Positions 13,427 to 17,415 of a stretch of DNA of 64,000 bases are shown piece by piece. Location: NCBI RefSeq assembly GCF_000017165.1, contig NC_009634.1, forward strand, positions 572,249 to 636,248. The letters run 5' to 3'. The notes beneath the pieces are model-generated. The model made no database searches. It saw nothing but the letters and a program-made list of their open reading frames with translations, and was not told the origin of the DNA. The stretch comes from Methanococcus vannielii SB (GTDB taxonomy: Archaea > AGJL01 > Methanococci > Methanococcales > Methanococcaceae). A program made the translations under genes and the position numbers. How positions within the stretch are numbered: the first letter of the stretch is position 1; the number at the start of each line of letters is the position of its first letter.

Positions 13427-14674
13427 TTATTTTCGTGATTCGAGTTTTTCAAGTTCGTTTAAAAGCAGTACTAAAAATACCCCTACATCAGTAACTACCC
13501 CTATTGCCTGTGAAGTTCCCCTGTCCATTAATTTAGTGACTGTTGACGGTTGGATATCTACACAAACTGTTTTAATGTATGAAGGCATTAAATTACCCGT
13601 TGCAACCGAATGTAATAATGTAGAAAGCATTATTACCATTTTTTTATCCATTACAGAACGCCTCATTTCATCCTGTGCAACCATAACATCGGTTATAACA
13701 TCAGGAATTGGGCCATCATCACGAATACTTCCTGCAAGGACGTATGGAACGTTATTTTGTATACATTGATACATTATCCCTTCTTTTAACCGTCCCTGTT
13801 CAACTGCATCTTTTATACTTCCTGCATCGATTATCGTGTTTATCGCATATATGTGGTGCTTATGCCCTCCAGTTACGGGTTTTGCCGTTTTTATGTCTAC
13901 ACCAAGGGAAGTTCCATAAAGAGCAGATTCAATATCATGAGTTGCGAGTGCATTTCCTGCCAAAATTGCCTGAATATATCCAAGTTCGACCATCTTCGCT
14001 AATGCTCCGCCCCCACCTGTATGAATTATTGCAGGCCCCCCAACAATTGCAATTCCACCTTTTCCGGTTTTTTTATATTCCTCACGAATTTCATGCATTT
14101 CTTCTGCAATTCTTCGAATAATAGCTTCTTTAGGCTTTTCTGAGGATACTTCTGAATTCATAAATTCAAAAAGCTGCCCTGCTTCCCTTGATTTTTCTGG
14201 AGGAATAACTCGTATTCCGTTGTGTCCAACTACTACGTAATCTCCGGCCTTAACTTTTCGCATTACTTTTGTTTCTGCAAGTTTTTCCTCAGGATAAACA
14301 ACAATTACTGCATCCATTTTTGGATTTGCTACCTCAATCCACTCATCATTTATTTTAACGTGTGTGGGATGGTTTGTAGTTGAATAAAATCCATCAGGCA
14401 ATACACTATCCTTTAAAGCCTTTTTTAAATTGGCATTTTCTATTTCAGGAATGTTTGCACCGACATTTTGAAGTGATTCAAGTATCTGATCAAGGTGTTC
14501 TTGAGTGTCCCCTGAAATCAAAAGTTTTGCATAAGAAGTATCGGTTTTTTTCTTCCCTATATCAAACTCCAAAACCTTGTAATCTCCGCCAAGTTCTAAA
14601 GTCTTATCAAATACTTTTGCAAGAATAAAACTATCAATTATATGTCCTTTTAATTCAATTTCTCTCATATACAT
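13427..14674 (-). CDS. TIGR00300-family LOR/SDH-domain protein, archaeal ornithine cyclodeaminase type
   Basis: A 415-residue enzyme of the family that includes the C-terminal domain of cyanobacterial AgrE/ArgZ. A methanococcal member is reported, from memory, to convert ornithine to proline and ammonia using NAD. The N-terminal 100 residues are a LOR/SDH regulatory-type domain. The C-terminal half is a Rossmann-like region with IAIVGGPAIIHTGGGGALAKMV, AGNALATHDIE, and GVDIKTAKPVTGGHKHHIYAINTI. The start ATG lies four bases after GGTGG; MREIEL at 14668 is an alternative with better spacing. A strong promoter stands 70-80 bases upstream. It heads an apparent operon with the small gene and hisC. 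Confidence 0.8.
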   Translation of the reverse strand: MYMREIELKGHIIDSFILAKVFDKTLELGGDYKVLEFDIGKKKTDTSYAKLLISGDTQEHLDQILESLQNVGANIPEIENANLKKALKDSVLPDGFYSTTNHPTHVKINDEWIEVANPKMDAVIVVYPEEKLAETKVMRKVKAGDYVVVGHNGIRVIPPEKSREAGQLFEFMNSEVSSEKPKEAIIRRIAEEMHEIREEYKKTGKGGIAIVGGPAIIHTGGGGALAKMVELGYIQAILAGNALATHDIESALYGTSLGVDIKTAKPVTGGHKHHIYAINTIIDAGSIKDAVEQGRLKEGIMYQCIQNNVPYVLAGSIRDDGPIPDVITDVMVAQDEMRRSVMDKKMVIMLSTLLHSVATGNLMPSYIKTVCVDIQPSTVTKLMDRGTSQAIGVVTDVGVFLVLLLNELEKLESRK

Positions 14675-14740
14675 AAAACCACCTAAAGTAAAAAAATAAA
14701 GTCCATTATTTTAATATTAAGATTTTAATGTCTTGCTTAA

Positions 14741-14755
14741 ATATATAATTTTTCG
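14741..14755 (-). promoter_or_regulatory. BRE/TATA promoter of the ornithine-cyclodeaminase-type gene
   Basis: On the minus strand the sequence reads CGAAAAATTATATAT, a near-consensus archaeal BRE plus TATA box. Transcription should start near 14718, leaving a leader of about 45 bases. The pseudoknot RNA further upstream is thus outside this transcript. Confidence 0.65.
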
Positions 14756-14806
14756 AATTAGATTAAGAATATAATTTTAATAAATGCAATAATTTTTGAT
14801 ACAAAT

Positions 14807-14907
14807 CATAACATTTATAATAAAATAAAGAAGTAATTTATTGTAAATAATTAACTATGTTAGTCCTCCGTGGGTAACGGGGACATTAAAACGTAGAATA
14901 TTACCCA
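14807..14907 (+). ncRNA. Predicted structured RNA with H-type pseudoknot, possible RNA antitoxin
   Basis: A TATA-like element (ACATTTATAATA, 14810-14821) is followed by a compact structure. GTCC (14863-14866) pairs with GGAC (14881-14884), and CCG (14868-14870) with CGG (14878-14880), leaving U67 bulged. This gives seven pairs enclosing the loop TGGGTAA (14871-14877). That loop is perfectly complementary to TTACCCA at 14901-14907. A T-run (14957-14963) follows. The segment is unusually GC-rich for this genome, as structured RNAs are in AT-rich archaea. A degraded reading frame begins at 14992. Expression is inferred; the reverse strand could in principle fold similarly. Confidence 0.45.
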
Positions 14908-14952
14908 ACTGTATGTTTTTGATGTAGTAATATGCAAATTAACAAAATATAG

Positions 14953-14966
14953 GTACTTTTTTTATT
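14953..14966 (+). terminator. T-run between the structured RNA and the degraded frame
   Basis: GTACTTTTTTTATT contains seven consecutive T, enough for archaeal intrinsic termination. It lies about 50 bases after the pseudoknot and 29 before the degraded frame, the place where type III toxin-antitoxin operons carry an attenuating terminator. Confidence 0.4.
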
Positions 14967-14991
14967 AATTATTATACTCAATTTTCAGGAT

Positions 14992-15386
14992 ATGATGAAC
15001 TCCTCGATAATAATGGGAACAATTTATCCATTTGCACTCGTTTTTAAATTAAAATAGGATTCTCAAAAATATTCATTTTTAATACCGTTTTGTTCAAATA
15101 TATCTCCAAAAGCAAACCGTTCCGAATATTTCACTGCCTCCCAACTAAAAAACCAATTCTGGCGAATAAATGGACTACATTATACAAAAATGTTTCCGAT
15201 AACGCCAATGTATTTACAAACATTTGCAATCGGTTCCGACCCGTATTGGAATTTAATCCAAAATAAATAACACAAAATAAATCAGACATAATTAATAATG
15301 CACAAAAATACATAACCAACTATGAAAATAATATACGACATAATTATTCTGTAGATATAGATAAAGTTATTTCTACATTAAAATAA
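14992..15386 (+). pseudogene. Broken gene, translation resembles ToxN/AbiQ-type endoribonuclease toxin
   Basis: From ATG 14992 the frame runs to an in-frame TAG at 15055-15057, continues open to TAA at 15268-15270, and resumes in another frame to TAA at 15384-15386. The frame break coincides with a repeat of CAAAATAAAT (15259-15268 and 15273-15282). Removing 14 bases joins the two parts into one sentence-like protein of about 126 codons. The pieces YPFALVFKL, YSFLIPFCSNISPK, FWRINGLHYTKMFPITPMY and DPYWNLIQNKSDIINNAQKYI follow the order of ToxN/AbiQ motifs. In those toxins the motifs are R-P-[FY]-x-x-V, a [FI]PLSSPK-like loop, F-x-I ending in MIPV, and a Y-x-x-L-x-x-Q helix. The resemblance is by eye. 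Two lesions argue that it is not functional. Confidence 0.5.
15259..15282 (+). repeat. Short direct repeat causing the frameshift in the toxin-like pseudogene
   Basis: CAAAATAAAT occurs twice, 14 bases apart. One extra copy plus AACA accounts exactly for the shift between the two open frames, the signature of a replication-slippage or tandem-duplication event. Confidence 0.7.
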
Positions 15387-15405
15387 AAAATGATTATATT
15401 TAAAT

Positions 15406-17415
15406 TTACTTAAAAAACGAGCTATTTTTCAAATTATCTTCTTTCATATTTTTCATAAATTGCGGAATGTAGTTCGATGCAGATTCAACTGTCATTTGCA
15501 TGAATTCATCTTTTAAATACTTTCTTTTTATCATTTCTAAACCCACCCACTCATTAAACCGCTTATCTTGGATAATTACTACCCCGTAATCTGTTTCAGT
15601 CCGTATGAGTCTTCCAATCATTTGTATTACAGTTCTTGCCATTATGTGAAATGAAGTCATTAAAAATGCACTCCAATGTGCATCTTTTACCGTCCTTGCC
15701 TTTAATCGCTCTTCTAATAGCCCTTGTTCCCGTTTTAAAAGTGGTGTTGGAACGGGAAATGGTAAACTATCGATAATAACACATGTTAAGGCATCTCCAG
15801 GAATATCCACCCCTTCTGCAAATCTTCCAGTTGCCAAAAGAAGCCCACCATATTTTTGAAAGTCTTCTTTTAGCTTTTTTGCAGCCTTTCCATCCATTCC
15901 TGATTCATAGCAGTAGATATTTCTAGAATATCCATTATCTAAAAAATATTCGTATGAAGTTTTTAAATCTCCAAAACTCTTAAAAAGTATTAAAGTATTT
16001 CCGTCTGCTGAATTTACAAGTTTAAACAATTTTTCATTTGCTTTTTTACGTTTTTTATCCTGTGAAGTTATATCCATAGAATTAAACTTCATATCTTCCC
16101 CATCACTCAATGCAATAATTTTTCTCCTATCCTTTGAAAATGGGCTATCTAAAATTAAATTTTCACTTTTTCCCATTCCTGTCTTTATTGCATGTATATT
16201 TAAGTTCCCAAGTGTTGCTGAACAATGTACTACCGAAGCACTGCCGTATAACTTATTAAGATACGTTGAAACAAGTACTGGTTCACAGAGTATCGAAAAA
16301 TTATTTTTATATATTACAAAATTTCCAGTAATAGTTTTTAAACCATTTAAATTTTCCAAAAATTCAGTTAATGGAACATCTGAAATTTTCCTATCTGAAA
16401 TAAACTGGAGTTCTAATGGGGTTAAAGATTTATTTTCTATTTTAAATTTTAAATCTTTTTTTTCTATCTCTTCATTTTCTTTTAAGTCCCCAATTAATTT
16501 TTTAATTTTCTTTATTTCCCGATAACCTTCAAGAAGTGACCCAAGTATTGCAACGTCTTCTTTAAGTCCTGATGCAGTTATACGAAACCCGTTAAACAGA
16601 AGTGAATTTATACAGTCTTTTCCAGATGCATTTTTTGTAACGTAATCTTCAACAATTGTCCAAAATATTTCGTCATCGTCATCAGGGGCCCTTTCAAAAT
16701 GCGTTCTAAGACGTGTTGTTGAATAATGGTAAGCCATGAATCTAAGCCGTTTTAGTGCATAATCAGGACTTATAACAATTGTTGCAGCATTTCTTATGCT
16801 CCCTTCAAGTTTATGTGCTTCGTCACAAATTACAATATCAGTCTGCTTTTTTTTATCAATTTCGTCTTTAAGATAATAGTAAATCGTGTTATTCATAACG
16901 ATTATATTTGCATCAAAGCATTCTATTTTTGCTTTTTGGTAACCGCAAATACATAGTGGGCAGTAAAATGAAACATTTCCTTCATATTCAATTTTGTCTT
17001 TTTTTGTTCCGCAAACACACACGGGTTTTTTATTTGGCCGATATGTACAGCCCTTGTTTAACTGACAATATAGAGTATTTGCTTTTTCTCCTTTTGACTT
17101 ACAGAAAAAATTACCCTTTCCCATCATAAAGGATATTTTTAAATTGTGCTTTAATGAATTTAAGTCTTCAAAAATCCTTTCCTGTTGGTCGATAGTTTCC
17201 GTAAGTATTATTATACGTTTTCCACGTTCTGCAAAGTAAAGTGCTGGAACTAAGTATGATAAAGTCTTTCCAACCCCAGTTGGTGCCTCTACAACAAGAT
17301 TTTTTTTATTTTGTACGCATTCGTAAATTTTAGCCATTAATTGTTCTTGTTGGGGCCTTTTACTGTAATATGGAAATTTTTCATTGGAATATTCTTTAAA
17401 TTCGCCAAAATTCAT
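15406..17415 (-). CDS. XPD/DinG-like superfamily 2 DNA helicase
   Basis: Predicted 5'-3' ATP-dependent helicase in DNA repair, 669 residues. Walker A is EAPTGVGKT (residues 43-51), the DEAH box is IVICDEAHKLE, and motif VI is IQMIGRLIRTETDYGVV. The iron-sulfur region between Walker A and DEAH is unusual. It contains nine cysteines (FFC, LYC, KGC, VCVC, YCPLCIC, EC) where XPD needs four, with a CxC...CPxC pair resembling an extra zinc ribbon. The ATG follows AAGTGATAAA. It stands alone between the toxin-like relic and the phosphorylase gene. Whether it is a nucleotide-excision helicase or a DinG-type one cannot be settled from sequence alone. Confidence 0.88.
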   Translation of the reverse strand: MNFGEFKEYSNEKFPYYSKRPQQEQLMAKIYECVQNKKNLVVEAPTGVGKTLSYLVPALYFAERGKRIIILTETIDQQERIFEDLNSLKHNLKISFMMGKGNFFCKSKGEKANTLYCQLNKGCTYRPNKKPVCVCGTKKDKIEYEGNVSFYCPLCICGYQKAKIECFDANIIVMNNTIYYYLKDEIDKKKQTDIVICDEAHKLEGSIRNAATIVISPDYALKRLRFMAYHYSTTRLRTHFERAPDDDDEIFWTIVEDYVTKNASGKDCINSLLFNGFRITASGLKEDVAILGSLLEGYREIKKIKKLIGDLKENEEIEKKDLKFKIENKSLTPLELQFISDRKISDVPLTEFLENLNGLKTITGNFVIYKNNFSILCEPVLVSTYLNKLYGSASVVHCSATLGNLNIHAIKTGMGKSENLILDSPFSKDRRKIIALSDGEDMKFNSMDITSQDKKRKKANEKLFKLVNSADGNTLILFKSFGDLKTSYEYFLDNGYSRNIYCYESGMDGKAAKKLKEDFQKYGGLLLATGRFAEGVDIPGDALTCVIIDSLPFPVPTPLLKREQGLLEERLKARTVKDAHWSAFLMTSFHIMARTVIQMIGRLIRTETDYGVVIIQDKRFNEWVGLEMIKRKYLKDEFMQMTVESASNYIPQFMKNMKEDNLKNSSFFK

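What the first reader, a model, noticed from the sequence alone, without database searches (positions are those of the whole stretch)
14863..14907. Hairpin loop perfectly complementary to a downstream heptamer: predicted pseudoknot RNA
A seven-pair stem (GTCC/GGAC plus CCG/CGG, one bulged U) closes the loop TGGGTAA, and TTACCCA occurs 24 bases after the stem. Seven consecutive complementary bases in such a short space are unlikely by chance in a roughly 67% AT genome. The segment is also locally GC-rich, a mark of structured RNAs in AT-rich archaea. It does not lie in the leader of the neighbouring minus-strand gene, whose promoter is downstream of it.
Basis: partly seen in the sequence, partly recalled or inferred. 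Interest (0 to 1): 0.65.

Follow-up and report, generated by a model that had tools for sequence, protein, structure and literature searches.

The report
Lone GC-rich hairpin, pseudoknot unproven
A short GC-rich hairpin whose loop could pair with a nearby heptamer really exists in this methanogen's DNA, but it occurs in no relative, sits in a stretch found only in this species next to the probable wreck of a gene, and nothing shows it is made into RNA, so it is a weak candidate small RNA or a chance relic.

Summary
The sequence claim is right. At 14863-14884 there is a seven-pair stem with one bulged T around TGGGTAA, and TTACCCA lies at 14901-14907 (16 bases after the stem, not 24). A fold this GC-rich is rare: 2 of 1000 shuffles of the window held one. 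Of 23 hairpins of this strength in 464 kb of the genome, all but three lie in tRNA genes or rRNA-like stretches. Given the hairpin, the heptamer is expected by chance about 0.6-3% of the time. The pseudoknot is not the predicted best fold: an outer helix (14855-14861/14890-14896), itself unremarkable, gives -16.4 kcal/mol and would block it.

The element is absent from 60 other genomes by DNA and covariance-model search. The three nearest congeners have 88-126 bases where the window has 731, so the hairpin lies in about 600 bases found only here, which also hold a probable decayed glycosyltransferase 3' end. No strong + strand promoter precedes it. A minus-strand promoter-like site (14945-14963) scores like the neighbouring gene's own.

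Best reading: fortuitous or relic hairpin in decaying species-specific DNA (about 0.5); an orphan small RNA is the main rival (about 0.3).

The parts
14863..14884 (+). GC-rich hairpin: GTCC/GGAC plus CCG/CGG, bulged T14867, loop TGGGTAA (14871-14877)
   Evidence: Sequence; RNA fold -12.8 kcal/mol for 14863-14885, z -3.5, 0 of 200 shuffles as stable
14901..14907 (+). Heptamer TTACCCA, perfectly complementary to the hairpin loop (possible pseudoknot partner, or the second arm of a 7-bp inverted repeat in DNA)
   Evidence: Sequence; 0.6-2.7% chance given the hairpin, by flank shuffles
14855..14896 (+). Outer helix 14855-14861/14890-14896 (CTATGTT/AACGTAG, one G-U pair) that encloses the hairpin on the + strand and competes sterically with the pseudoknot
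   Evidence: Fold of 14855-14897: -16.4 kcal/mol, z -3.5; but with the hairpin fixed, 49% of flank shuffles fold as well
14957..14963 (+). T7 tract, a possible terminator of a + strand transcript (a T5 tract also lies at 14916-14920)
   Evidence: Sequence; U4-U7 tracts are the terminator signal in Methanococcus maripaludis (PMC8716108)
14945..14963 (-). Promoter-like site (AAAAAAAGTACCTATATTT) reading towards the hairpin on the minus strand
   Evidence: Weight matrix from 16 tRNA promoters of the same genome: 6.1 bits, rank 37 in the window, both strands
14737..14757 (-). Promoter of the ornithine cyclodeaminase gene, more than 100 bases beyond the hairpin
   Evidence: Score 5.9, rank 48; conserved as TTCAAAAAATTATATATT(T/C)A in three congeners
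14756..15390 (.). Species-specific stretch that holds the hairpin (edges approximate)
   Evidence: 731 bases between the helicase stop and the start of the next gene here; 88, 88 and 126 bases in the three congeners that keep the gene pair
15100..15386 (+). Probable decayed 3' end of a group 1 glycosyltransferase gene, with an in-frame stop
   Evidence: tblastn 31.2 bits to L176 (Pfam Glycos_transf_1) against at most 24.3 bits in 200 shuffles; 24% identity over 89 residues; tentative
13427..14674 (-). Neighbouring gene: TIGR00300, nickel-pincer-nucleotide-dependent ornithine cyclodeaminase
   Evidence: NCBIfam 648.5 bits, cut-off 410.8
15406..17415 (-). Neighbouring gene: DinG/Rad3-like helicase (below the equivalog cut-offs)
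   Evidence: NCBIfam YoaA 187.5 bits, DinG 173.3 bits, both below cut-off

Best explanation
The hairpin and its complementary heptamer are most likely a fortuitous or relic structure in species-specific, decaying DNA that lies between the helicase gene and the ornithine cyclodeaminase gene, without a selected function as a pseudoknot RNA. If the + strand is transcribed at all, the predicted product is a nested hairpin of about 43 nt rather than a stable pseudoknot. Shown: the sequence, its rarity, its absence in relatives, and the extra DNA at this place. Inferred: that the stretch is decaying (from the probable glycosyltransferase remnant) and that no function is under selection.
For: About 600 extra bases compared with congeners at the same gene pair; no copy elsewhere in the genome and no homologue in 60 other genomes by DNA or covariance model; no Rfam match at gathering cut-offs in the window and only chance-level matches (E 3.5 and 3.6) in the intergenic region; a probable glycosyltransferase remnant with an in-frame stop in the same stretch; no + strand promoter of note (best rank 342 in the window); the pseudoknot is estimated less stable than the nested fold; the outer helix is no better than chance; without the G-C requirement, loop-complement motifs of this geometry are common.
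Against: The G-C content of the motif is unusual: 2 of 1000 whole-window shuffles. In 464 kb of real sequence nearly every hairpin of this strength lies in a tRNA gene or an rRNA-like stretch, which is what a structured RNA would look like. The heptamer match given the hairpin is a 0.6-3% event. A T7 tract 50 bases downstream could end a small transcript. Absence from other species does not exclude a lineage-specific RNA.
Confidence: 0.5

Rival explanations
1. An orphan, species-specific small structured RNA on the + strand, about 120 nt from roughly 14843 to the T7 tract at 14957-14963, carrying the hairpin near its 5' end and an H-type pseudoknot or a switch between the nested hairpin and the pseudoknot; it might act by base pairing through the G-rich loop.
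For: Rarity of the motif; stable hairpin; heptamer match; T7 tract in the right place, U-tracts being terminators in Methanococcus.
Against: No good + strand promoter (a TTTATAATA-like site at 14814-14822 scores -4.75 bits, while tRNA promoters of the genome score 17-27); no conservation; whole-transcript fold z only -0.97.
Confidence: 0.3
2. Part of a long alternative leader of the ornithine cyclodeaminase mRNA on the minus strand, started at the promoter-like site 14945-14963, with TGGGTAA preceding the hairpin and pairing with its loop TTACCCA.
For: Promoter-like score 6.1, slightly above the gene's own proximal promoter at 5.9; minus-strand fold of 14770-14915 has z -2.1.
Against: The proximal promoter 14737-14757 is the one conserved in congeners; the minus-strand segment alone folds no better than shuffles (z -0.12).
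Confidence: 0.12
3. A DNA-level element: TGGGTAA-N23-TTACCCA is an inverted repeat serving as a protein-binding site or a leftover end of a mobile element.
For: The inverted repeat is perfect over 7 bp and lies in a species-specific stretch; 22-nt hairpins with a bulged T resemble in shape the ends of IS200/IS605 elements (recalled, not tested beyond the next point).
Against: No Y1 transposase in the genome; no second copy; the heptamer or its complement occurs nine times on the + strand of the window, so it is not a rare site.
Confidence: 0.05

Closest known systems
H-type pseudoknot RNAs (such as the preQ1-I class of riboswitches)
   Same: Hairpin loop complementary to a segment downstream of the stem
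   Different: No Rfam family matched; no intact downstream gene on the + strand, only a probable pseudogene; no conservation; the loop leaves at most one base to cross the second helix
Archaeal intergenic small RNAs (such as sRNA162 of Methanosarcina mazei, PMC3510493)
   Same: Intergenic, hairpin-bearing, of plausible small-RNA size
   Different: No transcript known, no good promoter, no target
IS200/IS605 end hairpins
   Same: 22-nt hairpin with a bulged T in a species-specific stretch (resemblance recalled from memory)
   Different: No Y1 transposase in the genome, no second copy

Membership tests
H-type pseudoknot RNA | Loop complementary to a downstream segment, with connecting loops long enough to form | tested here: inconclusive
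   Complement present. A 6-bp second helix leaves one base for loop 1 and 16 for loop 3, which is feasible only if the outer helix is open; the nested fold is estimated more stable
H-type pseudoknot RNA | Covariation of both helices across homologues | not testable with these tools
   No homologue found
Known RNA families (Rfam 15) | Match at gathering score | tested here: not met
   0 matches in the window; only chance-level matches in 14690-15420, none over the hairpin
Archaeal small RNA gene | Promoter upstream on the transcribed strand | tested here: inconclusive
   Best + strand site in 14700-15000 ranks only 342 in the window, but the matrix comes from strong tRNA promoters; a minus-strand site ranks 37
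Archaeal small RNA gene | Discrete transcript | not testable with these tools
   No transcriptome data were available
IS200/IS605 or its non-autonomous relatives | Y1 transposase or several copies in the genome | tested here: not met
   PF01797 absent from the genome; no second copy

The most novel reading that the evidence does not exclude
A lineage-specific, newly arisen archaeal small RNA with a hairpin/pseudoknot switch, born in the remains of a decayed gene.
Probability: 0.12. Interest if true: 0.5.

Novelty: new member of a known kind. Interest (0 to 1): 0.17.

Why it matters
If transcribed, it would be one more orphan structured RNA in a mesophilic methanogen and a case of RNA birth in pseudogene DNA. 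As it stands it mainly shows that a stem-loop plus a loop complement in one genome, without relatives, does not establish a pseudoknot RNA.

Tried and rejected
Rfam at gathering and relaxed thresholds: nothing at the hairpin. tRNA/tmRNA scan of the window: none. DNA, pattern and covariance-model searches of relatives: only the window's own genome, apart from chance AT-rich or weak matches. The 17-mer core in viral contigs: two exact matches in unrelated GC-rich DNA without the heptamer nearby, about what chance gives in a collection of that size. The DNA match to G032 (E 1.5e-7) lies between genes of that genome (L100) and is AT-rich chance similarity. Plasmid and phage searches and viral-contig protein searches: no relative. 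A minus-strand reading of the extra stretch (stop-interrupted frame within 15063-15344) found no relative. IS200/IS605 origin: no Y1 transposase. 3' end of the helicase mRNA: thought unlikely because a T6/T4 tract follows the helicase stop within about 30 bases, far before the hairpin (inference).

Full report
What is there. The window lies in a single-contig genome of 1,720,048 bases; the size and gene content point to Methanococcus vannielii (own knowledge, not shown by a tool). The finding's sequence is present at the stated coordinates. The stem is GTCC/GGAC and CCG/CGG with T14867 bulged, the loop TGGGTAA at 14871-14877, the complement TTACCCA at 14901-14907. The distance is 16 bases from the stem, not 24. 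Folding adds a U-A pair in the loop and, on the + strand, an outer seven-pair helix 14855-14861/14890-14896.

Is it more than chance? Motifs with this geometry are common in this AT-rich DNA (4.5 per shuffle of the window), but nearly all are AT pairs. With at least 9 G-C pairs of 14, as here, 2 of 1000 shuffles have one. In 400 kb sampled from the same genome, no other 7-mer motif exceeded 7 G-C pairs; with 6-mers, the only others with 9 or more are two hairpins that recur at three and two places in the stretches that look like rRNA (the rRNA assignment rests on repetition and 55-61% G+C, not on an annotation). A hairpin with at least 7 pairs and 6 G-C occurs 23 times in 464 kb. One is the window's; three lie in tRNAs recognised by ARAGORN and one more in the tRNA at 1379952-1380025; sixteen are in the rRNA-like stretches of L154, L167 and L169; one is in a 1164-codon frame; one is in an unexplained ORF-free stretch (L158). 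Given the hairpin, the perfect heptamer arises in 0.6% (150-base flanks) to 2.7% (47-base flanks) of flank shuffles. The thresholds were chosen after seeing the motif, so these figures overstate the case; my judgement is that the hairpin is unusual, the pseudoknot partner suggestive, and the whole not beyond a lucky find in a long scan.

Would it form a pseudoknot? A 6-bp loop helix with one crossing base and a 16-base return loop is geometrically possible when the outer helix is open. A rough energy sum, hairpin with open loop -8.2, loop-heptamer duplex -8.1 with about 4.1 of initiation in it, and a pseudoknot penalty of about 9.6 kcal/mol (Dirks-Pierce value, recalled), gives about -11 kcal/mol against -16.4 for the nested fold. 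So the pseudoknot is not predicted to win, though such sums are crude and count the loop penalty twice. The outer helix is itself no better than chance (49% of flank shuffles). On the minus strand the segment folds no better than shuffles.

Relatives. The helicase and ornithine cyclodeaminase genes are neighbours in the three nearest congeners with 88, 88 and 126 bases between them, and in a relative of another genus with 217; in the window the gap is 731. The cyclodeaminase promoter aligns among the congeners. About 600 extra bases therefore lie upstream of that promoter, and the hairpin is inside them. DNA, pattern and covariance-model searches find the element only in its own genome, once.

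What the extra DNA is. A + strand frame at 15100-15386 with an in-frame stop resembles the C-terminal part of group 1 glycosyltransferases of other Methanococcales (24% identity over 89 residues; 31.2 bits against at most 24.3 in 200 shuffles; weak hits in three genomes to ORFs of about 370 codons, two of which were read and are alike). The match was picked out of a search of 151 genomes, so this is tentative. If right, the stretch is the wreck of a gene, and its above-average G+C (up to 44%) is that of old coding DNA, which weakens the argument from local G+C.

Transcription. A weight matrix from 16 tRNA promoters of this genome gives no convincing + strand promoter before the hairpin (best rank 342 in the window; the TATA-like site at 14814-14822 scores -4.75, while tRNA promoters score 17-27). 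On the minus strand, 14945-14963 scores 6.1, like the cyclodeaminase promoter (5.9). The matrix is trained on strong stable-RNA promoters and may miss weaker mRNA-type ones. A T7 tract at 14957-14963 could end a + strand transcript, as U-tracts do in M. maripaludis (PMC8716108).

Verdict. I put about 0.5 on a fortuitous or relic hairpin, 0.3 on an orphan + strand small RNA, 0.12 on a long minus-strand leader, 0.05 on a DNA-level element. The novelty grade applies only if it proves to be an RNA: it would then be a new member of a known kind (an orphan intergenic archaeal RNA with a possible H-type pseudoknot).

Noticed in passing
window 15100-15386 (+): Probable decayed C-terminal part of a group 1 glycosyltransferase gene, with an in-frame stop, in a stretch absent from congeners.
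   Followed up: partly
L158:1-1500 (G000:C1:320001-321500): Stretch with no ORF of 80 or more codons and about 44% G+C around a strong 11-pair hairpin (TCACCACCGTACTTGGTACGGTGTGA at 120-145) followed by T6; no Rfam match or tRNA. Possibly an unannotated structured RNA or the edge of a mobile element.
   Followed up: partly
window 14945-14963 (-): Second promoter-like site reading towards the ornithine cyclodeaminase gene, scoring as high as the conserved proximal one.
   Followed up: partly
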